Source: Clostridia bacterium
GTDB taxonomy: Bacteria; Bacillota; Clostridia; Christensenellales; Aristaeellaceae
Direction: 5' to 3'
NCBI GenBank assembly: GCA_017516765.1
Contig: JAFXBE010000106.1
Span: 1 to 46,235, forward strand
DNA: 46,235 bases
Positions 1,694-44,118 of this stretch are shown one piece after another. Numbering within the stretch: position 1 is the first letter of the stretch; every line of letters begins with the position of its first letter. The notes under the pieces were generated by a model, which saw nothing but the letters and a program-made list of their open reading frames with translations, was not told where the DNA came from and ran no database searches. Position numbers and translations under genes: made by a program.

Positions 1694-2380
1694 ATGGAAA
1701 TCATTCGCTCTGAATCTCTCAGCAAAGTCTACCGTACAGGCGAAAACAAGGTTTACGCCCTGAATAACGTGTCCCTGTCCATTGAGCAGGGCAGCTTTAC
1801 CGCCATCACCGGCCCCAGCGGCAGCGGAAAATCGACGCTGCTGCATCTGCTTTCCGGTCTGGATCATCCCACTGACGGCAAGGTGATCTATCAGGACGCT
1901 GATCTGTACAAGTACAAGGATAATCAGCTGGCTGTGCTGCGTCGTCGTCGCTTTGGTTTTGTGTTCCAGAGCTATAATCTGGTGCGCGAGTTGACCGGCT
2001 GGGAGAATATTCTGCTGCCTGTAATGCTGGACAACCGCAAGGCAGATGAAGAACACCTGAACCGCATCATTGATCTGCTGGGCATTCGGGATCGACTGTC
2101 CCACCTGCCCGGAGCCATGTCCGGTGGTCAGCAGCAGCGCATCAGCATTGCCCGTGCGCTGGCGAATAAGCCCGCGATCCTGTTTGCTGACGAACCTACC
2201 GGCAATCTGGACGGCAAGAGCGGACGCGAAGTGCTGACGCTGCTTCGTCAGGTGAACCGCGAGCTGGGCATCACGCTGGTGTTGGTCACCCATGATCTGA
2301 ACGTGGCAGAACAGGCAGACCGCATCATTCAACTGGAAGACGGCAAGATTGCCCGTGACAGCGGGGTGATGCAGGCATGA
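1694..2380 (+). CDS. ABC transporter ATP-binding protein (MacB/BceA type)
   Basis: ATPase subunit of 228 residues. I chose ATG 1694 because AAGGAGG lies at 1678-1684 with good spacing; the upstream in-frame GTG at 1673 has no such site. It shows Walker A GPSGSGKST, the signature MSGGQQQRISIARAL, Walker B ILFADEPTGNLD and the H-loop VTHD, all intact, so it should hydrolyse ATP. The stop overlaps the permease start as ATGA (2377-2380), indicating tight coupling. With the FtsX-type permease it belongs to the class that removes or senses peptides at the membrane rather than the classical importers. Confidence 0.95.
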   Translation: MEIIRSESLSKVYRTGENKVYALNNVSLSIEQGSFTAITGPSGSGKSTLLHLLSGLDHPTDGKVIYQDADLYKYKDNQLAVLRRRRFGFVFQSYNLVRELTGWENILLPVMLDNRKADEEHLNRIIDLLGIRDRLSHLPGAMSGGQQQRISIARALANKPAILFADEPTGNLDGKSGREVLTLLRQVNRELGITLVLVTHDLNVAEQADRIIQLEDGKIARDSGVMQA

Positions 2381-5154
2381 AGCGCCTCACCATGAATCAA
2401 GTGGCGAAAGCCAATCTGAAGCATAACAAGAAAGCATATTTCAGCCTCGCCATCGGAATTTTCTTGGCGGTCTATTTGGCCTGCACTGCAGTGCTGTGCA
2501 TCTATGGCACGCTGGAAGCCAACAATGAAAAAGCAGCCCGAAAGGTGGGCTGGGGCGATACGACGCTCCTCGACGAACCGAATGTCACAGATGATCAATT
2601 GCGCAGCAGCGGCTATTTCGACCAAATTGGTCGTATCTATGTGACAGCTTCTGTTAATGATAGCGAGGTTTTCATCGGTCGCTATGATGAAACGGCCAAT
2701 GACCTTATGTATCGCCGCTGTACCGTAGGCCGCTTGCCTGAAAAACCGGGTGAAATTGCCGCTGAACGCAGTGCTTTGGATAAGTTGGAGCTGGAAGATG
2801 CCAATGTTGGCGATATCGTCACATTTACCCTCAAAGCTTTTGGCGGTACACCTGAAAAGCGTACCTTCACACTGGTTGGCATTCTGACGGAGCAGACTTC
2901 CTATATGGAGCACACCTGGAGTTTTTTCCCAGAGGGAACGGGGGCATTTCCTGCTATTCTAACACATTACGATGAACCTGGCTGTCAGTACGGTACACCC
3001 GTTGTTCACAGAATCATGACAAACCGCCCTGGCGTTACGTTGACAGAAATTCAGGCTGATGAAATTCTTTATCAGCTGGGAACGGCTGCTCAGATCAGCC
3101 GGGTAAGCGGTAATGTTATGCCCTATGATAATAGGGTGAATGATATCAAAGAACAAATTAATCAGGTTGTTTTGTATCTCATTCTTGGTAGCGCACTACT
3201 TTTGTCTACTTGCGTTGCAATCTCTTCTTCGATGGAAAGCATGCTGGCACAAAAGACAGAGGACATTGGCATGCTACGGGCTGTGGGTGCCACAAAGAAA
3301 CAGATCAAGCGTCTCTTTGGGCGTGATGCCTGGATTCTGACGCTAACTGCGCTACCGGTTGGTGCGATTCTTGGTTGCTTGACGGCATGGATCATATCCT
3401 GCCTGATGCCAAACGAACTGATTTTTTTACCAACTCCATGGCTTCTTATTCCAGTTGTCTTGATTTCTTTCCTGTGCGTATTTCTTTCTTCTATGCTGCC
3501 GCTGCGTCGGGCGTCCCGTCAACTACCTATGGGCATTCTGCGCGACACAAACACCCTGCGCAAGGCAAAAAAATTCCGCAACCACAAGCAGTTTAAGGCT
3601 ACACAGCTCATTGCCGCTCGGCAGTTCTATCTTCATCCTATGCGTCAGACTGGCAGTGCTTGTATGATAGCACTGATGCTGTTTGTCGCAATACTGCTGG
3701 GCGAAATGCTGATCAGTACTGCTGCCAGCACCATATCCAACCAGGCTGCTTTTACGCTGACATCACGCCAAGATGTTGGATATACACTGGAACCTTTTGT
3801 CCATCTCAAAAGCCCGATTAGCGGTCTTACGCAAAATGATTTGAATCAGCTTCGTACATTGCCCACGGTTCGTAGTACAGGAAGCAGGTTAGAAACACAG
3901 GCCCTGTTGCTGGTGCCTGAGGAGCTTCCCTCTTATCTAAAAACGCATTATATTGCCATACAGGCTGATGCGCATAACCGCAACATGCCCGTCAATCCAA
4001 CAGCAGGGGCTATTGATACACGTTATCTTGTGGTGGAAAAAGAGGAGCCTGTGCATACCTTTCCCGAAAGCTTGTCTTATGACAGCGCTATGATAACAGC
4101 AAAGCAAATGCATGTGTTGCAGAGCGTATTGGGCGTTCATCAGAACATCATGCCTATCCGTATCATTGTCGCTACACTGGATGAGGTCGATTTTTCAAAA
4201 AACATAGTGGATGGCGAAATTGATTTTGATGCACTGGATTCCGGCGAAGAAATTCTGGTCTACGCGCCTAACGTCGTTGCTAAGCCTTCCAACCATGGTA
4301 TGCTTGAAACAAATCAGTACTTTGATGACGAAATTGATCCGGCAGCATGGGATGTCGTCATCATGAATGATTACTTCTATGTTGGGCAAGAACTGAACAT
4401 GTATCAATTGTTTGGTGAACAGCCTGATTGGTTTGATACTCGTGATAATGAAGGGCAGTTGCAAAGATTTTATAGTGAAATGGATACCGTAAGCTTTTCT
4501 CCCAAAGTAGGCGCTGTGCTGAAAGGTGTTTTCAGGATTGGCAATACGCGGCCATTTGGCATGTATCTGATTACCACTGAAAAAGGAGCCAAAGCGCTGG
4601 GCCTCATGGATAATGGAGCGGCAAGTGTCAGCATATACCTGGAAGGTGATCCAGACATCGACACAGAAGAGCTACTGAATGATACCATTAAGCGAATTGG
4701 GCTTCGCAGAAACATGACCGTTGTGAATCAGCTGGCGATAAACCGTGAAGATAAAGAATATCAGACAAGAATTCTAATGCTATTTGGCGGCATGGTCATT
4801 CTTTTCTTCGCTGTAGCTGTTTCTATGCAGGTGACGAACGCTTCCCGCCGCATCCGCGCAGATGAACGCATGGTGGGTACGCTGCGTGCTGTGGGCGCAG
4901 ATGAAAACGCCCTGCTCAGCTGCTATCGGCTGCCGATCATCATTTCCTCCCTTTTCGGATTTGTTCTCGCAGCGATCTTCTATCTGCTGATGATGGTTTT
5001 CTACCCCATCGCATTCCCGGAATGGCACATCTGGCTGCTTGCGATCGTGCTGATGATGGCTGGGCTGAATGCGTTGTGTTCCATTATCGGTGTGCGTGGT
5101 CAACTGCACCGGGTTGTGAACAAGAGCATTATCGAGAATATCAGGGAGCTGTGA
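2377..5154 (+). CDS. FtsX/MacB-type ABC transporter permease
   Basis: Large permease of 925 residues. Hydrophobic segments lie near 20-43, 264-282, 315-340, 351-375, 426-446, 801-821, 854-876 and 884-904. This gives two repeats of one helix, a large extracytoplasmic domain and three helices. FtsX-like motifs appear twice (DIGMLRAVGATKKQIKRL and MVGTLRAVGADENALLSC). The second outer domain (about 447-800) is unusually large; BceB proteins are nearer 650 residues with one large loop. It starts in the stop of the ATPase gene and is followed after 4 bases by an exported partner. Peptide resistance or export is inferred. Confidence 0.9.
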   Translation: MKRLTMNQVAKANLKHNKKAYFSLAIGIFLAVYLACTAVLCIYGTLEANNEKAARKVGWGDTTLLDEPNVTDDQLRSSGYFDQIGRIYVTASVNDSEVFIGRYDETANDLMYRRCTVGRLPEKPGEIAAERSALDKLELEDANVGDIVTFTLKAFGGTPEKRTFTLVGILTEQTSYMEHTWSFFPEGTGAFPAILTHYDEPGCQYGTPVVHRIMTNRPGVTLTEIQADEILYQLGTAAQISRVSGNVMPYDNRVNDIKEQINQVVLYLILGSALLLSTCVAISSSMESMLAQKTEDIGMLRAVGATKKQIKRLFGRDAWILTLTALPVGAILGCLTAWIISCLMPNELIFLPTPWLLIPVVLISFLCVFLSSMLPLRRASRQLPMGILRDTNTLRKAKKFRNHKQFKATQLIAARQFYLHPMRQTGSACMIALMLFVAILLGEMLISTAASTISNQAAFTLTSRQDVGYTLEPFVHLKSPISGLTQNDLNQLRTLPTVRSTGSRLETQALLLVPEELPSYLKTHYIAIQADAHNRNMPVNPTAGAIDTRYLVVEKEEPVHTFPESLSYDSAMITAKQMHVLQSVLGVHQNIMPIRIIVATLDEVDFSKNIVDGEIDFDALDSGEEILVYAPNVVAKPSNHGMLETNQYFDDEIDPAAWDVVIMNDYFYVGQELNMYQLFGEQPDWFDTRDNEGQLQRFYSEMDTVSFSPKVGAVLKGVFRIGNTRPFGMYLITTEKGAKALGLMDNGAASVSIYLEGDPDIDTEELLNDTIKRIGLRRNMTVVNQLAINREDKEYQTRILMLFGGMVILFFAVAVSMQVTNASRRIRADERMVGTLRAVGADENALLSCYRLPIIISSLFGFVLAAIFYLLMMVFYPIAFPEWHIWLLAIVLMMAGLNALCSIIGVRGQLHRVVNKSIIENIREL

Positions 5155-11837: not shown

Positions 11838-11913
11838 TTATAACCCTCGTCAGGGGCGGCCGAACACCTTCCGCTTAGGAGGCGGTCGCTCTATCCTGCT
11901 GAGCTACGGGCGC
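11838..11913 (-). pseudogene. degenerate second tRNA-Arg (CCT) copy
   Basis: The 5' half is near identical to the intact tRNA (GCGCCCGTAGCTCAG and the CTCCTAAGCG anticodon region). The T-arm is distorted (GGTGTTCGGCCGCCCC) and there is no acceptor 3' strand matching GCGCCCG. It lies directly downstream of the promoter at 11948-11976, so it may be transcribed together with the intact copy. It could be a scar of an earlier integration or a decayed tandem duplicate. Confidence 0.65.
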
Positions 11914-32014: not shown

Positions 32015-32171
32015 GTTCAGCATCCTCCTTAAAGCACATTTCGCTCCAAACGGACAAATACAGCGCATGGGCGTTGCATTACCGTGTACAGGAGCAATGA
32101 CCGCAGAACCTGCGGCAGCGTTCTTGCTTAACACAGAGCGCAATGGTTACTACAACGTTTTCGCTAATAAT

Positions 32172-32200
32172 AATATACTATATTCCCCATGGAAATGCAA
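32172..32200 (-). promoter_or_regulatory. promoter of the sugar transport operon
   Basis: On the minus strand TTGCAT (32200-32195), 17-base spacer, TATATT (32177-32172), followed by an AT-rich start region and a leader of about 150 bases with GCGAAAACGTTGT, a partial match to LacI/CcpA-type operators. No LacI-family gene is present in the window. Confidence 0.7.
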
Positions 32201-32299
32201 GAGTTTTTTGCCTTGTTCCCAAGCACCCGCCATATGCTGAAAGCCGATATGCGATACCGTTTTCCGCTTGTTTTCCCCCGGCATATCCGCCAAAGGGCA

Positions 32300-32335
32300 A
32301 AGACCCCCGCACGGCGGCAGCCGCACAGAGGTCTT
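32300..32335 (-). terminator. probable terminator after rho
   Basis: On the minus strand AAGACC (32335-32330) pairs with GGTCTT (32305-32300), enclosing a further CGGC/GCCG stem, with only TTTG after it. Confidence 0.5.
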
Positions 32336-32343
32336 GTGACGGA

Positions 32344-34341
32344 TCACCGCTTCAGGTAGCCGCTCTTTTCCCAGAGCGCCATCCATTCCTGCAGCTTGGT
32401 GAGCAGGTCTTCGTTGCATTTGGTTTTCTGCATCATATCGATCAGCTGTACCACAGCTTCGCCGTTGGTGGTGGAGCCCAGCACCTGTCGGATGGCGGCA
32501 AGACCCTCCCGGCGGCGTTCATCCAGCAGCATGGCATCCTTTTTGGTGCCGCTGCGCTGCAGATCGATCATAGGGGTGATGGGATCGTTGTTTTCGGGAG
32601 CGCACAGCACCAGCTCCATATTGGCAGTGCCTTTGAACTCTTCGAAAATGATATCATCCACGCGGGAGCCTGTCCCGGTGGCGATGGTGGCCACAACGGT
32701 CAGGCTGCCGCCGTCGCGGGTGTTTCTGGCCGCGCCGAAGAAACGCTTGGGCTTGACCAGCGCAGAGGGGCTGACGGTATTGGACATGGGGCGCCCATTC
32801 TGCGCCTGCGCCGCCTGATAGGCGCGGGTCAGCTTGGTGAGGCTGTCCAGCAGGATGACCACGTTCTTGCCGTTTTCCACAAGGCGCATGGCGCGCTCCA
32901 GCATGTTCTCGCTTACCCTGGTCTGGGTCTCGGGCGCATCGGAGAAGGTGGAGGCAAACACCTCGGCATCCGCGCTTTCCTTCAGGATGGTCACATCCTC
33001 GGGAGCGATGTCGATGAGCAGCATCAGCACCTCGGCTTCGGCGTCGTTGCGTTTGATGGCGCAGCTGATATCCCTGAGGATGCTCAGACCGTCTGCCCCG
33101 TCGGGGGTTACGATCATGGCGCGCTGACCAAAACCGATGGGCGCGATCAGATCCGCCAGACGGATGACCATATTGCCGGGGTGATCGATGCTTTCCAGCT
33201 CGATACGCTTTTCGGGATAGATGGGCACAAGCATTTCAAAAGCAGGACGGGACTGCTTTTCGTCCGGCTCCCTGCCGTTGATCTTATCCACCGTGAGCAG
33301 GGCGGCGTACTTGTCGCTTTCCCGGCGGGAACGCGCCATACCTTCGATCACATCGCCGGTGCGCAGATCGAAACGGCGCACCTGTGCCATGGATACATAC
33401 ACATCGTTGCGGCCCGGCACCAGCGTTTCGCTGCGCAGGAAGCCATAGCCGTCCGGCAGAACTTCCAGCAGACCCTGTGCAGGTTCTGCATTCTGCAGCT
33501 GCATCAGGTCGGGCAGCTGTCCCTGTTCCATCTGGGCGGCAAACTGCGGATCCCGCTGAGCGCGGTAAATACCGTCGCCGGAAGCGGACTCGCCGCCGCG
33601 CTGATTATAGCCGTAGCCGCCGTTCTGACGGTAGCCGTAGCCCTGCTGATTCTGGCGGTAGCCGCCGTTATTGTTGTAGCCGCCGCCGTAGTTCTGCTGG
33701 CGGTAGCCGTAGCCCTGCTGATGGTCGCGGCTCTGGTACCCCCCGCGCTGAGGTGCGGCGCGGTAGCCCAGACGGTAGCCGTCCAGCTGCTGGGGCATCT
33801 CCCGCTGCTCCTGCGCAGGTGCGCGGTAGCCCTGCCGGTAGCCGTCGCTTTCCATGCGGGATACGGGCTCGTTCTGGTCGTGGCGGGGCTGATAGCCCAT
33901 GCCTTCTTCCGCAGGCATGCTGCCGGCGTTGCTGCGGTTCTGGGGACCGAAACGGTTGGCGCTGTGGACGGGCTGCTGGCTCTGCCACGCAGGGCGGTTA
34001 TCCCGCTGCTGCATCTGGCTGCGTGCCTGCCATGCCTGCCGGTAGACCGGACGGTAGCCGTCCTCCTGCCGTTCGGGCTGGCGGGACTGATAGCCGCCGT
34101 AGGAACCGCCGGGACGGGGTGCGCTGGTCACATCCACAGAAAGTGTCTCAACGGGTTGGGGCGCAGCGGGAGCCGCCGGTACAGGCTGGGGTGCGGGCTC
34201 GGTTTCGGCAGAGCACAGCTGCTGACCGATCTTTTCCACGATCCCTTCCTTGTCGATACCGGCATGCAGTTTGATGCCGTTTTCCTTTGCCAGCTTGCGC
34301 AGCTGAATCACCGTCATCGCCTGCAAATCGCTGATCTGCAA
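32344..34341 (-). CDS. rho: Rho-family factor with degenerate ATPase site and long disordered insert
   Basis: Homologue of transcription terminator Rho, 665 residues against about 420 in E. coli, from TTG 34341 behind AAAGGAGGG. Order: Rho_N/SAP-like helices (1-43); a long Gln/Asn/Tyr/Gly/Arg-rich disordered stretch (about 45-280); the RNA-binding cold-shock domain (about 288-360; LEVLPDGYGFLRS, DVYVSMAQVRRFDLRTGD); the RecA-like core. In the core the P-loop is PDGADGLS (413-420) where active Rho has PPKAGKTM, and Walker B is LIDIAPEDV (442-450) where active Rho has LIDERPEEV, so the P-loop Lys and Thr, the catalytic Glu and its neighbouring Arg are missing. Kept are LLDSLTKL, KPKRFFGAARN (RNA-contacting loop) and GGSLTVVAT; the later RSGTR is RSGTK. 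ATP-driven translocation looks lost. It follows a methyltransferase gene by 48 bases. Confidence 0.9.
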   Translation of the reverse strand: MQISDLQAMTVIQLRKLAKENGIKLHAGIDKEGIVEKIGQQLCSAETEPAPQPVPAAPAAPQPVETLSVDVTSAPRPGGSYGGYQSRQPERQEDGYRPVYRQAWQARSQMQQRDNRPAWQSQQPVHSANRFGPQNRSNAGSMPAEEGMGYQPRHDQNEPVSRMESDGYRQGYRAPAQEQREMPQQLDGYRLGYRAAPQRGGYQSRDHQQGYGYRQQNYGGGYNNNGGYRQNQQGYGYRQNGGYGYNQRGGESASGDGIYRAQRDPQFAAQMEQGQLPDLMQLQNAEPAQGLLEVLPDGYGFLRSETLVPGRNDVYVSMAQVRRFDLRTGDVIEGMARSRRESDKYAALLTVDKINGREPDEKQSRPAFEMLVPIYPEKRIELESIDHPGNMVIRLADLIAPIGFGQRAMIVTPDGADGLSILRDISCAIKRNDAEAEVLMLLIDIAPEDVTILKESADAEVFASTFSDAPETQTRVSENMLERAMRLVENGKNVVILLDSLTKLTRAYQAAQAQNGRPMSNTVSPSALVKPKRFFGAARNTRDGGSLTVVATIATGTGSRVDDIIFEEFKGTANMELVLCAPENNDPITPMIDLQRSGTKKDAMLLDERRREGLAAIRQVLGSTTNGEAVVQLIDMMQKTKCNEDLLTKLQEWMALWEKSGYLKR

Positions 34342-34389
34342 AAGAAACCCTCCTTTACTGATGAATACGGGTATAGATTGTTGGATGCA

Positions 34390-35406
34390 TCAAAGTTTCC
34401 GGGCAAGAACAGCATCCCGTTCCACCGCCTGCTCCACCCAGTGGGCGAAACCGTCAAAGGGCGGCTGGACAAGAGGCTCCAGACCGGCAGCTTCCAGAGC
34501 GGCTGCGGCTTTCTGCCGGGAAAGAGTGAACGCATTGAAGGAAAACGCCGCCACGCCGCCGGGCTTGAGCACTTGCGCGCAGCCCTGTGCAATGCGGGAA
34601 AGCAGCCTTTCCGGGGAGGAAAACCCATGCCCCTCCTGAGGCGCATGCTGCACGCCGTAGGGCAGATCGCCCACGATCAGGTGGCAGGAGGCGTGCTTCA
34701 TCATTCTGCCAAGCTGACCGGAATCACCGCTGATCAGCTGCAGGGTGCGGGTATCGCCCTGTTTCTGCTTATCGGCATCCTGGGCAACGGTGTATTGAAC
34801 CGTCTGCACATGTCCCCCGCCGGTAAGGGTCTGGGAGGCGGTGGTACGCTTGTGCTTGTAGCGGTTCAGCTTCAGCGAGCGGGCAAAGTAGGTGTCCGCT
34901 TCGTGCAGGGCTTTCTCGTCCCGGTCAACGCCGATGGCGTTATGCCCCAGGCTGAGGGCGCAGAACGCGGTGGTGGCTTTACCGCACACGGGATCCAGCA
35001 CGGTAAGCGGCTTTTCGTCTTTTGCAAACCCCGAGGCTGCCAGGGCGCAGTTGATGAGCATCATGGTAAAATCGGCATTGGTCTTGCCTTTGTATTTGAG
35101 CACCTGCGCCAGCTCCTCCGGCAGGTACCAGTCCGGGCGGCGCTGTACGGGACGCAAAAGACCGTCGGGCAGCAGCTCGCACAAAAGGGCGCAGCCGGAA
35201 TGGCGGGAAAGCATCTTCAGCAGCCCATCGGACATTTCGTCTGTTTCGAAACACAAAAAGGGCTCGCCGCCGAATTCTGCCGCCGTAACGGCGCAGCCGG
35301 GGCAAAAAGCCTGCAGCATGGTTTGCAGTTCAATGGTGGCCAGTTGCTGAAGAGACTGGCGGTAGCGCGCATTGGCATGCGGCTTCAGAAGCATTGTATA
35401 GCGCAC
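34390..35406 (-). CDS. SAM-dependent RNA methyltransferase, TRM11/UPF0020-like
   Basis: Protein of 338 residues from GTG 35406 (GAAAGAGG at 35420-35413). It has the SAM-binding motif I as LDPVCGKATT, a following acidic GVDRDEKAL, and GDLPYG in the position of the N6/N2-guanine methyltransferase motif (D/N)PPY. LKPGGVAAFSFNAF follows. This matches the UPF0020/TRM11-like RNA methyltransferase group, which modifies tRNA or rRNA guanines; a THUMP domain is not obvious. It probably shares a transcript with rho, 48 bases downstream. Confidence 0.75.
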   Translation of the reverse strand: MRYTMLLKPHANARYRQSLQQLATIELQTMLQAFCPGCAVTAAEFGGEPFLCFETDEMSDGLLKMLSRHSGCALLCELLPDGLLRPVQRRPDWYLPEELAQVLKYKGKTNADFTMMLINCALAASGFAKDEKPLTVLDPVCGKATTAFCALSLGHNAIGVDRDEKALHEADTYFARSLKLNRYKHKRTTASQTLTGGGHVQTVQYTVAQDADKQKQGDTRTLQLISGDSGQLGRMMKHASCHLIVGDLPYGVQHAPQEGHGFSSPERLLSRIAQGCAQVLKPGGVAAFSFNAFTLSRQKAAAALEAAGLEPLVQPPFDGFAHWVEQAVERDAVLARKL

Positions 35407-35568
35407 GGGAATCCTCTTTCTTACATTCAATATTGAATATTGCATAACTTGATTGATCGAAGGAGATTGAATGCAATAAACCAATAAAACCCAAAGGCTG
35501 GTGTGATTATATCACATCCGATGTTTAAATGCAATTGATTATCTTTCACGAACAAGATCGAATAAACA

Positions 35569-36316: not shown

Positions 36317-36517
36317 GTGAAAGAGAAGATCCATCCCAAATATGGCAAGTCTACCGTCCGTTGCGTGTGCGGTGAGACGTTCGAAACCGGCTCCGTCAAG
36401 GGCGAGCTGAAGGTCGAAATTTGCTCCAAGTGCCACCCCTTCTACACCGGCAAGCAGAAGCTGGTGGACAGCGGCGGACGCGTGGATCGCTTTAAGAAGC
36501 GTTTCAATATCGAATAA
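36317..36517 (+). CDS. rpmE: 50S ribosomal protein L31, zinc type
   Basis: Ribosomal protein bL31 of 66 residues. The zinc-binding cysteines C16, C18, C36 and C39 are present ([18 protein letters not shown]), so this is the C+ form rather than the zinc-independent paralogue. AGAGGTG precedes the GTG start. In many Bacillota rpmE is adjacent to rho and prfA; here rho is on the opposite strand beyond the tRNA cluster. Confidence 0.97.
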
Positions 36518-38650: not shown

Positions 38651-39718
38651 CTGTTTGAGAAATTCGATTGGATCGAAGGGCGATATCAGGAGCTGACCGA
38701 AGCCATCAGCCAGCCCGAGATCATTGCAGACCAGGCAAAATGGCAGAAGCTGCTCAAGGAGCACGCTTCTCTGGAGCCTCAGGTAAAAGCCTGGCAGGCA
38801 TACAGGCAGACCCTGCAGGAGATCGCCGAAGCCCGGGAGATGCTTTCCATGCCCGAGATGGCAGAACTGGCGCAGGAGGAGCTGCCCCGGCTGGAGCGCG
38901 CCAAGGGTGAGCAGGAGCAGGAACTGCGCCTGCTGCTTCTGCCCAGAGACCCGGACGCGGACAAGAACGTGGTGGTGGAGATCCGTCAGGGGGCAGGCGG
39001 CGATGAGGCAGCCCTTTTCGGCGCGCTGCTGCTGCGCATGTACACCCGCTATGCCGAGCGCAACCGCTTCAAGGTGGAGATGGTCTCGGACAACATGACC
39101 GAGCTGGGCGGCGTTAAGGAAGCCGTGATCACCATTACCGGCGAGGGAGCCTTCAGCCGCCTGAAATACGAAAGCGGCGTGCACCGGGTGCAGCGGGTGC
39201 CCACCACCGAATCCGGTGGGCGCATCCACACCAGTACCTGCACCGTGGCCGTACTGCCCGAAGCGGAGGATGTGGAGGTGGAGATCAACCCCGGCGACCT
39301 GCGCATCGACACCTACCGTGCAGGCGGCGCAGGCGGACAGCACGTAAACCGTACCGACTCCGCCGTGCGCATGACCCATCTGCCCACCGGCATTGTGGTG
39401 CAGTGTCAGAACGAGCGCAGCCAGATCCAGAATCGTGAGATGTGCCTGCGCATTCTGAAAAGCCGCCTGTACGACAAATACCGGGAAGAAAAGGACAGCG
39501 AGTACGCCGAGAACCGCCGCGACCAGATCGGTACCGGCGACCGGAGCGAGCGCATCCGCACCTACAATTTCCCCCAGGGACGTGTGACCGACCACCGCAT
39601 CGGTCTGACCCTGTACCAGATCGACAGCATTCTGGACGGCGATCTGGACGAGATCATTGAGGCGCTTCGGCTTGCCGAGCAGGCCGAAAAGCTGAAAGCC
39701 TTCGGAGATGAAGCCTGA
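38651..39718 (+). CDS. prfA: peptide chain release factor 1 with apparent CTG start
   Basis: RF1 reads UAA and UAG stop codons; 355 residues when begun at CTG 38651. The frame upstream reads [21 protein letters not shown] in outline, the normal RF1 N-terminus, and no ATG, GTG or TTG exists in frame between the prmC stop and ATG 38840. AAGGAG lies 9 bases before the CTG. The stop-codon recognition motif is PTT (184-186) in [16 protein letters not shown] is at 228-230 in [15 protein letters not shown], close to the E. coli numbering, which supports the full length. A start at 38840 would delete 63 residues. Confidence 0.93.
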
Positions 39719-41271: not shown

Positions 41272-42945
41272 ATGAAACTGACCTTTTTGGGAGCCGCGCA
41301 TGAGGTGACCGGCAGCCGTTTTCTGCTGGAAGCCTGCGGTAAGAACATCATGATCGACTACGGTATGGAACAGGGCACCGACCTTTACGAGAACACGCCC
41401 CTGCCCATGACGGAGGGCACGCTGGATGCCGTGCTGCTGACCCATGCCCACATCGACCACAGCGGTTACCTGCCCCTTCTGTACAAGAACGGCTTCCGTG
41501 GGCATGTGTACGCCACCGAGCCCACCACCGACCTGTGCAGGATCATGCTGCTGGACTCCGCCCACATTCAGGAAAGCGATGCAGAGTACAAGAACCGCAA
41601 GAACCAGCGCAGCGGCAAGCCCCTTGTGGAGCCGCTCTACACCCAGGAGGATGCGCTGGCGGTACACAGCCAGTTTGTTCCCTGCCGCTACAACGACAGC
41701 GTGGATATCTTCGACGGCATCACCATCCGCATGGTGGATGTGGGGCATCTGCTGGGCTCCGCCGCCATCGAGGTGACCGTGCGGGAGGACGGCAACGAGA
41801 AAGTGCTGGTTTTCTCCGGCGACATCGGCAACATCCGCCAGCCGCTGCTGCGGGATCCCATCCCCATGCACCGGGCAGATATCGTGGTGATGGAATCCAC
41901 CTACGGCGACCGCACCCACGGCCCCACCCCGGACTATATCGGCGACCTGACGGAGATTATCCAGTCCACGCTGGACAAGGGCGGCAATGTGGTCATCCCC
42001 AGCTTTGCAGTGGGACGCACCCAGGAGCTGCTGTACTTTATCCGCCACATCAAGCAGAACGGGCTCATCAAGGGGCATGACCATTTCCCCGTGTATGTGG
42101 ACAGCCCGCTGGCGGTGGAAGCCACCAATGTGTTTAAAGAGAATACCTACGAATGCGCCGACGAGGAGACCCTCGCGCTGCTGAAGCAGGGCATCAACCC
42201 CATCGCCTGCCCCGATCTGCGGCTTTCCATCACCGCGGACGACAGCAAAGCCCTGAACACCGATGAGGAACCCAAGGTGATCATTTCCTCCAGCGGCATG
42301 TGCGATGCGGGCCGTATCCGCCACCACCTGAAGCACAACCTGTGGCGCCCCGAATGCACCGTGCTGTTCGTGGGCTACCAGAGCAACGGCACCCTTGGCC
42401 GCAGCCTTGTGGACGGCGCAAAGCAGGTGAAGCTCTTCGGCGAACCCATCGAGGTGAACGCCCGGATCGATACCCTGGCGGGCAAGAGCGGCCACGCCGA
42501 CCAGAACGGTCTGATCAACTGGGTAAACAGCTTCTCGCCCAAGCCCCAGCGGGTATTCGTGGTGCACGGTGAGGACGGCGTAACCGATACCTTCGCCAAA
42601 CTGCTCACCGAGCGTTACGAGCACGTGACCACCGCCCCCTACAACGGCGAAAGCTGGGATCTGGTAACCATGAAGAAGCTCTGCGACGGCAACAACACCC
42701 GCATCCAGAAGCCCGACCGGGATGTGGCAGCCGCCGATGCCCAGCAGACCAACTCCTCCCCCAGCCACAAGGACAAGCAGCAGGGCAAGCCGCAGAACAT
42801 CTCCCAGAATTATGCCAACCTGCTGGTGGCCATGGACAAGCTGCAGGATGTGGTGGAACGCATGCAGAGCCGTTCCAAAAAGGAACAGAGCAAGCTGACC
42901 AACTATATCTACAACCTGATCCGCCGTTTCGGCAAAAAGAAATAA
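41272..42945 (+). CDS. metallo-beta-lactamase/beta-CASP ribonuclease-like protein
   Basis: Protein of 557 residues of the CPSF/RNase-J-like superfamily. The metal motif is LTHAHIDHSGYLP, followed by SAHIQESDAEYKNRKN, VDVGHLLGSAAIE, SGDIGN and the beta-CASP part with ESTYGDRTHG, SSSGMCDAGRIRHHL and HGEDGV. All metal ligands look intact, so an RNA-cleaving hydrolase is likely. The C-terminal 65 residues are polar and helical, perhaps for protein contacts. GAGGAGGG precedes ATG 41272. It is a separate transcript or the end of the yqhQ run; a strong terminator follows. Confidence 0.9.
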   Translation: MKLTFLGAAHEVTGSRFLLEACGKNIMIDYGMEQGTDLYENTPLPMTEGTLDAVLLTHAHIDHSGYLPLLYKNGFRGHVYATEPTTDLCRIMLLDSAHIQESDAEYKNRKNQRSGKPLVEPLYTQEDALAVHSQFVPCRYNDSVDIFDGITIRMVDVGHLLGSAAIEVTVREDGNEKVLVFSGDIGNIRQPLLRDPIPMHRADIVVMESTYGDRTHGPTPDYIGDLTEIIQSTLDKGGNVVIPSFAVGRTQELLYFIRHIKQNGLIKGHDHFPVYVDSPLAVEATNVFKENTYECADEETLALLKQGINPIACPDLRLSITADDSKALNTDEEPKVIISSSGMCDAGRIRHHLKHNLWRPECTVLFVGYQSNGTLGRSLVDGAKQVKLFGEPIEVNARIDTLAGKSGHADQNGLINWVNSFSPKPQRVFVVHGEDGVTDTFAKLLTERYEHVTTAPYNGESWDLVTMKKLCDGNNTRIQKPDRDVAAADAQQTNSSPSHKDKQQGKPQNISQNYANLLVAMDKLQDVVERMQSRSKKEQSKLTNYIYNLIRRFGKKK

Positions 42946-43910: not shown

Positions 43911-44118
43911 GTTTGCATTCGGCTGACCTGGTCTTTGACCCCACACTCGCCGGCTGGAGGGTCTGCTCATCGCACTGGCGCCCTACTCGCCCTCTCTCGC
44001 TTAACAGCGGCCGGTCTTACCTCTAGAACGCGCCATGCTCACCGGGGCTTTGCCCGGCTTACGTGGACCGCTTTGCCCGCGTCTGGCATCGGCTTGCAAC
44101 CACAGACCCGAATGCAAC
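43911..44118 (-). ncRNA. structured RNA of about 208 nt, possibly raiA-type
   Basis: The start coincides with a promoter-predicted transcription start. Its first bases GTTGCATTCGG pair with CCGAATGCAA at its end, a 10-pair closing helix over 200 nt. Inside are GTCTG/CAGAC, CCGGG-CAAAGC-CCCGG, CGC-TGTTAA-GCG and GGTC-AAA-GACC, so it has several helical arms. No reading frame fits it. It sits 27 bases before the zinc-ribbon gene, so it could be a stand-alone RNA or a leader. The raiA motif, a large Clostridia/Actinobacteria RNA of similar size and closing stem, is the candidate I consider first, from memory and not by alignment. Confidence 0.7.

What the first reader, a model, noticed from the sequence alone, without database searches (positions are those of the whole stretch)
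32344..34341. Rho homologue with an apparently dead ATPase site but intact RNA-binding features
Seen directly: the P-loop is PDGADGLS instead of the PPKAGKTM of active Rho, Walker B is LIDIAPEDV instead of LIDERPEEV, and RSGTR is RSGTK. The Lys/Thr that bind ATP, the catalytic Glu and a neighbouring Arg are gone, yet the cold-shock domain and the KPKRFFGAARN loop are conserved and the reading frame is open over 665 codons. The location near rpmE and prfA is the usual rho locus of Bacillota, so this may be the organism's main or only Rho. A non-translocating RNA-binding ring, a dominant modulator of a second Rho, or a condensate scaffold are possibilities.
Basis: partly seen in the sequence, partly recalled or inferred. 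Interest (0 to 1): 0.85.

Follow-up and report, generated by a model that had tools for sequence, protein, structure and literature searches.

The report
Rho lacking its motor's active site
In a group of gut bacteria the only Rho found, a protein that normally is the ATP-driven motor that stops RNA synthesis, has lost nearly all of its ATP-using residues while its RNA-gripping part stays conserved, so it likely works as a passive RNA holder rather than a motor.

Summary
The window's only Rho (32344-34341, minus strand) has lost nearly every ATP-handling residue: K181G, G183D, K184G, T185L, M186S, E211I, R212A, F355T and R366K (E. coli numbering). It keeps the Walker B Asp265 and the cold-shock RNA-binding surface.

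It is no local error. All 17 held genomes of the genus carry only this form, and the 120 nearest protein clusters share it. Selection is purifying (omega 0.02-0.11), and Shine-Dalgarno plus TTG start is kept in 16 of 17. It sits at the ancestral rho locus, so it is an ortholog.

The wider picture was not in the finding. In the same bacterial family the catalytic Glu was lost at least five times, including in a genus with single-contig genomes. All losses read in the family lie in one clade whose NusG mostly has a residue inserted in its Rho-contact loop; 20 genera read outside are intact.

Best reading: a motor-less, probably NusG-uncoupled Rho kept as a passive RNA-binding ring or scaffold, perhaps condensate-forming. 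ATPase loss is near-certain from sequence; the new role is inferred. A purine-bias test was inconclusive.

The parts
32344..34341 (-). rho ortholog without ATPase residues, 665 aa, TTG start
   Evidence: only Rho found in the genome
34342..34356 (-). Shine-Dalgarno AAAGGAGGG and spacer before the TTG start
   Evidence: sequence; SD-like stretch plus TTG in 16 of 17 genus members, ATG in the 17th
33517..34221 (-). residues 41-275: Q/P/R/G/Y/N-rich, disordered-looking insertion with short conserved motifs (YRQAWQ at 34027-34044, NRFGPQ at 33940-33957, GYRLGYRAAP at 33751-33780)
   Evidence: GYRxG[YF]RAAP-type motif in 127 of 137 genus sequences and 3 of 3 of g30; positions
33262..33477 (-). residues 289-360: Rho_RNA_bind cold-shock domain (primary RNA site)
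   Evidence: Pfam PF07497 E=2.5e-29; key residues kept
33082..33105 (-). degenerate P-loop PDGADGLS, residues 413-420 (E. coli 179-186)
32992..33018 (-). LIDIAPEDV, residues 442-450: catalytic Glu211 and arginine valve Arg212 lost
32830..32862 (-). Walker B VVILLDSLTKL, residues 494-504, with Asp265 kept
32722..32754 (-). KPKRFFGAARN, residues 530-540, conserved
32542..32556 (-). RSGTK, residues 596-600: arginine finger Arg366 replaced by Lys
34390..35484 (-). methyltransferase gene directly upstream (ancestral neighbour of rho)
   Evidence: DNA-methylase-type match over cut-off, others below; pair kept in intact and dead genera

Best explanation
This is the only Rho found in its genome, an ortholog at the ancestral rho locus without the residues that bind and split ATP in normal Rho, and it likely works as a passive RNA-binding ring or scaffold instead of a translocating terminator. 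Shown: orthology; genus-wide loss of K181, K184, T185 (Ser in one), E211, R212 and R366; kept Asp265 and primary RNA-binding residues; purifying selection; a kept translation start; no second Rho found. Shown in relatives: separate losses of the catalytic Glu in other genera, all of those read in the family lying in one clade in most of whose genera NusG has an extra residue in the loop that contacts Rho in E. coli. Inferred: no ATP hydrolysis and no translocation; NusG-Rho coupling weakened first, which relaxed selection on the motor; RNA is held through the cold-shock domain; and the Q/P/R/G/Y/N-rich insert with short conserved motifs adds RNA binding or self-association (possibly condensates). 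Untested: whether it still forms a hexamer, binds any nucleotide, or touches RNA polymerase.
For: Active-site loss in the window, in 17 of 17 genus genomes and in the 120 best-listed protein clusters (7999 were scored, 120 shown). The replacements are themselves fixed: T185L in 119, R212A in 118 and R366K in 120 of 120. Rho fold predicted with pLDDT 88.2 and pTM 0.87; the 50 PDB matches printed are all Rho. RNA site: 13 of 14 conserved cold-shock sites and 7 of 7 linker sites unchanged, against 3 of 10 in 346-370. omega 0.023-0.111 in 7 genus pairs. SD plus TTG start in 16 of 17. Catalytic Glu lost in at least 5 changes in the family on the Rho tree, 6 with another family. NusG loop insertion in 30 of 76 genomes, 13 genera, in one clade on the NusG+L11+L1 tree; not rejected on L11+L1. 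NusG loop I164-F165-G166 contacts Rho (passage of PMC7593976).
Against: No biochemistry. Purine-bias test: genus g1 is lower than intact relatives (0.509 vs 0.519, p=0.024), as loss of Rho termination predicts, but the other dead genus g42 is higher (0.533, p=0.055), so the test does not support a general loss. P-loop letters vary within the genus, as relaxed sites do. One of 17 has a frameshifted gene. The NusG insertion is absent or replaced in four clade genera with altered Rho (g25, g40, g60, g64) and present in g35 (active-site residues intact) and g45 (Rho over the cut-off). The same NusG loop may serve S10 binding (recalled).
Confidence: 0.62

Rival explanations
1. A decaying relic: these bacteria no longer need Rho and the gene is drifting towards loss.
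For: Related genera show deeper erosion (g7 72.5 bits, g51 D265N); G016 is frameshifted; P-loop letters vary.
Against: omega 0.023-0.111 over about 363 codons in 7 pairs, against 0.056-0.378 in 8 intact pairs; single open frame in 16 of 17; kept SD and TTG; replacement residues fixed; conserved insert motifs.
Confidence: 0.1
2. ATP-independent terminator: it still binds RNA and RNA polymerase and stalls or traps the polymerase allosterically, without translocation.
For: RNA site and much of the C-terminal fold are kept; polymerase trapping by Rho before translocation is recalled from published cryo-EM work, not taken from a call.
Against: The NusG loop is altered in the clade; Q-loop GG287-288 became NT and R353 became P; RNA polymerase contacts were not tested.
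Confidence: 0.15
3. A still active or nucleotide-sensing ATPase with an unorthodox site (for example Arg in place of the P-loop Lys).
For: 91 of 120 clusters have Arg at 184 and 64 keep Gly183; Asp265 kept in 120 of 120; genus g42 keeps the P-loop Lys (120 of 120 clusters).
Against: Catalytic Glu, arginine valve, Mg-binding Thr and adenine-stacking Phe are all gone in the window, and the window's own P-loop has Gly at 184.
Confidence: 0.1
4. A modulator that co-assembles with a second, intact Rho.
For: None found.
Against: No second Rho found in 17 of 17 genus genomes, of which 12 are at least 90% complete, nor in single-contig genomes of g42 (G188, G208; one match each).
Confidence: 0.02

Closest known systems
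Rho transcription termination factor (TIGR00767; E. coli, T. maritima)
   Same: Fold, cold-shock RNA site, Asp265, PKRFFGAARN segment; orthologous within its family by locus and tree
   Different: ATP-binding and hydrolysis residues, arginine finger and Q-loop glycines replaced; scores 430 bits against a 509 cut-off
Rho with disordered or prion-like insert (B. thetaiotaomicron, C. botulinum, M. tuberculosis)
   Same: Long disordered-looking insert ahead of the RNA-binding domain (reported for those species in passages of PMC11829017 and PMC13269538)
   Different: There the insert tunes a Rho that terminates transcription; here the motor residues are lost
NCBIfam NF041509 paralog_Rho2 (short second Rho)
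   Same: Rho-like core (341 bits)
   Different: Far below its 628-bit cut-off; here it is the sole Rho found, long form, an ortholog and not a paralog

Membership tests
Rho (by descent) | Rho_RNA_bind domain above gathering score | tested here: met
   PF07497 101.3 bits, cut-off 27
Rho (by descent) | RecA-like ATPase fold of Rho | tested here: met
   PF00006 41.6 bits, cut-off 29.5; predicted fold matches Rho, TM to 0.89
Rho (by descent) | orthologous locus and tree position | tested here: met
   methyltransferase-rho pair in intact and dead genera; nested among family Rhos
Rho (by descent) | TIGR00767 curated cut-off | tested here: not met
   430.2 bits against 509.45; the NF006886 Rho cut-off of 315 is met with 429
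Rho termination motor | Walker A Lys184 and Thr185 | tested here: not met
   Gly and Leu
Rho termination motor | catalytic Glu211 and arginine valve Arg212 | tested here: not met
   Ile and Ala
Rho termination motor | Walker B Asp265 | tested here: met
   Asp; 120 of 120 clusters
Rho termination motor | arginine finger Arg366 | tested here: not met
   Lys; 120 of 120
Rho termination motor | secondary-site Q-loop and R-loop | tested here: inconclusive
   K283R and K326R conservative, but V284P, G287N, G288T
Rho termination motor | hexameric ring | not testable with these tools
   single-chain prediction only
Rho termination motor | RNA-stimulated ATP hydrolysis and termination | not testable with these tools
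   needs purified protein
paralog_Rho2 (NF041509) | curated cut-off 628 bits | tested here: not met
   340.8 bits

The most novel reading that the evidence does not exclude
A whole clade of gut bacteria dismantled the Rho motor in steps: first NusG's Rho-contact loop changed, then Rho's arginine finger and Q-loop, then catalytic Glu and P-loop. It did so at least five times in parallel, converting a near-universal transcription terminator into a motor-less RNA-binding ring or condensate scaffold that is still under strong selection.
Probability: 0.45. Interest if true: 0.92.

Novelty: new variant of a known kind. Interest (0 to 1): 0.82.

Why it matters
Rho is treated as an ATP-driven motor wherever its gene is annotated; records of this group that carry a name call it 'transcription termination factor Rho' although the motor residues are missing. 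If true, Rho has a selected function that needs RNA binding but not ATP, which can be tested directly. It also gives natural intermediates (g30, g40, g42) that suggest the order in which a motor is dismantled, and a possible link between NusG coupling and the need for Rho. Surveys that count rho genes as Rho activity would be wrong for this group.

Tried and rejected
Second Rho in the genome: none found, nor in the genus. Local sequencing error: rejected, since all held genus members share the loss. Relic gene: disfavoured by omega and conserved replacements. Genome footprint test (purine bias, after PMC13323073): 61 genomes, 100 stretches, home-made gene calls (counts). Genus means: 10 intact genera 0.520, 12 altered genera 0.512, p=0.032; on majority-strand genes p=0.060; at fourfold sites p=0.18 (all genes) and 0.052 (majority strand). 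Dead genus g42 runs the other way (0.533), so inconclusive. The 'altered' set there included genera such as g26, g28, g31 and g46 in which many rows keep the catalytic residues. Overlap of changed sites between g1 and g42 (27 sites, P=1.1e-8) is not used as proof of parallel change because some sites may have changed before they split. Archaeal-type termination nuclease as a Rho substitute: the beta-CASP gene in the window occurs in 16 of 17 genus genomes but also in 6 of 23 other sampled genera, several with intact Rho, so no clear link. rpoB species tree: loci could not be cut. Literature: the listings (20 of 2,936 shown; 10 of 15 shown) show no paper on a naturally ATPase-dead Rho. The most relevant survey, Moreira et al. 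2024 (PMC11347177), is not held, so I cannot say that it does not mention this.

Full report
OBSERVATION. The minus-strand ORF 32344-34341 encodes 665 aa from a TTG start, preceded by AAAGGAGGG. It matches Rho_RNA_bind (E 2.5e-29) and the ATP-synthase/RecA domain (E 1.4e-10). Against the Rho equivalog model TIGR00767 it scores 430.2 bits, below the 509.45 cut-off. The closest solved relatives are Rho proteins of T. maritima, E. coli and others. Aligned to E. coli Rho (fetched), the ATP site reads K181G, G183D, K184G, T185L, M186S, E211I, R212A, R353P, F355T, R366K, while D265 is kept (motif positions checked). According to passages of PMC11718236, F355 and M186 sandwich adenine, K181 touches the gamma-phosphate, T185 holds Mg, R212 is the arginine valve, R366 the arginine finger, E211 the catalytic glutamate and D265 the Walker B aspartate. 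So in the window every ATP contact named there is replaced except Asp265.

ONLY RHO, GENUS-WIDE. The window's genome (3.01 Mb, 121 contigs, 95.5% complete) has one Rho match; the other two hits have E 1.0 and 4.0. All 17 held genomes of the genus have a Rho and none reaches the family cut-off; 16 of 17 are single open frames and G016 is split by an apparent frameshift. None of the 17 has K181, K184, E211 or R212; T185 is L in 16 and S in one; adenine-stacking F355 is kept in one. In the protein database 7999 candidates were scored and the best 120 listed: in all 120 E211 is lost (I 56, V 56, others 8), R366 is K and D265 is kept; T185 is L in 119 and S in 1; R212 is A in 118. One listed cluster is named from Candidatus Limiplasma pullicola, of an incertae sedis Eubacteriales genus. 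Four genus contigs are named MAGs of Clostridia/Clostridiales, one from sheep colon.

SELECTION AND ANATOMY. Over cold-shock plus ATPase domains (about 363 codons), omega was 0.023-0.111 in 7 genus pairs and 0.020-0.070 in 4 pairs of genus g42; 8 intact pairs (g6, g32, g35, g62) ran from 0.056 to 0.378 (pairs chosen by hand, simple counting method, some dS high). Of 134 sites conserved at 95% or more in 41 intact Rhos, the genus (136 sequences) keeps 92, has fixed another residue at 21, and varies at 21. It keeps 13 of 14 such sites in the cold-shock domain and 7 of 7 in the linker, but 10 of 20 in 156-207 (P-loop region) and 3 of 10 in 346-370 (finger region). F64, R66, D78 and Y80 are unchanged. 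Shine-Dalgarno plus TTG is kept in 16 of 17, the last has ATG. The long insert is rich in Q, P, R, G, Y and N and carries short conserved motifs: GYRxG[YF]RAAP-type in 127 of 137 genus sequences and 3 of 3 of sister genus g30. Its disorder is judged from composition; no disorder predictor was run. AlphaFold of residues 276-665 gave pLDDT 88.2 and pTM 0.87, and the 50 printed PDB matches are all Rho, TM to 0.89. Hexamer formation could not be tested.

ORTHOLOGY. The methyltransferase gene upstream of rho is found at the same place in 16 of 17 genus loci (the 17th contig ends too early) and in 13 genera outside the altered clade (g2, g4, g6, g27, g32, g33, g34, g36, g47, g61, g63, g65, g66). In several genera, intact (g2, g39, g55, g58, g61) and altered (g25, g40, g49, g64), rpmE follows rho on the same strand; in the window rpmE (36317-36517) lies beyond the methyltransferase and five tRNAs, on the opposite strand. 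So this is the vertical rho gene.

THE WIDER FAMILY. Of 200 family genomes (drawn from a larger group), 186 have a Rho match at E 1e-12, 104 of 104 among high-quality ones, and only 84 pass the cut-off (not all matches were listed). I read active-site residues in 103 Rhos: the best-scoring loci plus below-cut-off representatives chosen by genus, not all 186, plus order relatives. Of 102 readable, 51 have all six residues (K184, T185 or Ser, E211, R212, D265, R366), 16 lack only R212, T185 or R366, and 35 lack E211 or K184. Those 35 are g1 17, g42 7, g31 2 (K184R only, may be active), g46 2, g51 2, and one each of g7, g26, g60, g64 and o_G030, the last in another family of the order. g42 is a different route: in its 120 listed clusters E211 and R366 are always lost but K184 is always kept, with T185 partly lost; two of its genomes are single contigs. 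Sister genus g30 keeps P-loop Lys, E211 and R212 in 3 of 3 but already has R366K and the TNTVTP Q-loop, which suggests the order of loss. On a Rho tree built without the motif columns, g1 and g30 group with support 100; loss of E211 needs at least 5 changes within the family and 6 with o_G030 (g7 and G016 were left out of this tree). It is a quick tree with long branches.

NusG. In E. [quoted passage not shown] NusG was read in 76 genomes (64 family, 12 order; several genomes gave no NusG, and only 11 of the 17 g1 genomes did). In 30 of 76, from 13 genera and including all 11 g1 genomes read, one residue is inserted there (MF[L/M]GRE); one further g30 row is cut by the contig end. All 13 genera lie in one clade on a NusG+L11+L1 tree; on L11+L1 alone the clade is not rejected (AU p 0.697), although the free tree puts g62 inside. 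Residue-level Rho reads cover 17 genera of this clade (g3 placed by the Rho tree only): 15 have at least one Rho with a lost active-site residue; g28 and g35 do not. The 20 family genera read outside the clade are intact; 15 of them are placed by the NusG tree, five (g27, g36, g39, g56, g61) by the Rho tree only. Four clade genera with altered Rho (g25, g40, g60, g64) lack the insertion or have another form, and g35 and g45 have the insertion with a Rho that is intact (g35) or over the cut-off (g45, residues not read). This fits NusG changing first, but it is one clade, so it is one event of association, and S10 binding through the same loop (recalled) is an alternative reason.

FOOTPRINT TEST. 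PMC13323073 (abstract and passages) reports that rho-less Bacilli have a much weaker purine bias of genes. From 61 genomes g1 is lower than intact relatives (0.509 in 12 against 0.519 in 18, p=0.024), but g42 is higher (0.533 in 7, p=0.055). I count this as inconclusive.

MECHANISM. Shown: no orthodox ATP site, kept RNA site, selection, sole copy found. Inferred: no translocation; RNA clamp, ring or scaffold, with the insert possibly promoting assembly as reported for B. thetaiotaomicron Rho (PMC13269538, abstract and passages). Rivals are an allosteric ATP-independent terminator, a relic, and an unorthodox ATPase.

NOVELTY. The listings seen show no held paper on a naturally ATPase-dead Rho (some listings were capped); the key 2024 survey is not held. 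I file it as an ortholog of Rho by descent that fails the catalytic criteria of the Rho motor: a new variant of a known kind.

Noticed in passing
L124 (G000:C67, nusG) and related nusG loci: One residue is inserted in the Rho-contact loop of NusG (MF[L/M]GRE) in 13 genera of one clade.
   Followed up: partly
window 41272-42945 (+): beta-CASP nuclease resembling archaeal aCPSF1 (308.8 bits) and type VII Cas14 MBL-CASP (391.3 bits), both below cut-off; in 16 of 17 genus genomes and 6 of 23 other sampled genera.
   Followed up: partly
window 43914-44116 (-): raiA structured RNA, 181.8 bits, E 2e-46.
   Followed up: no
window 38840-39718 (+): prfA ORF matches release factor 1 only from model position 74, so its first part is missing or in another frame.
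   Followed up: no
L041 (G016) about 2075-4023: rho split into two overlapping frames by an apparent frameshift; could be a real mutation or an assembly error.
   Followed up: partly
L039 (G030, another family of the order): A further Rho with K184P, E211Q and R366M, an apparently separate loss.
   Followed up: partly
window 32143-35436 (+): 1097-aa open frame antisense to rho and the methyltransferase; judged spurious, not tested.
   Followed up: no
window 11855-11913 (-): Weak tRNA-like match (31.2 bits, just over the 29-bit threshold) beside tRNA-Arg, not found by ARAGORN.
   Followed up: no
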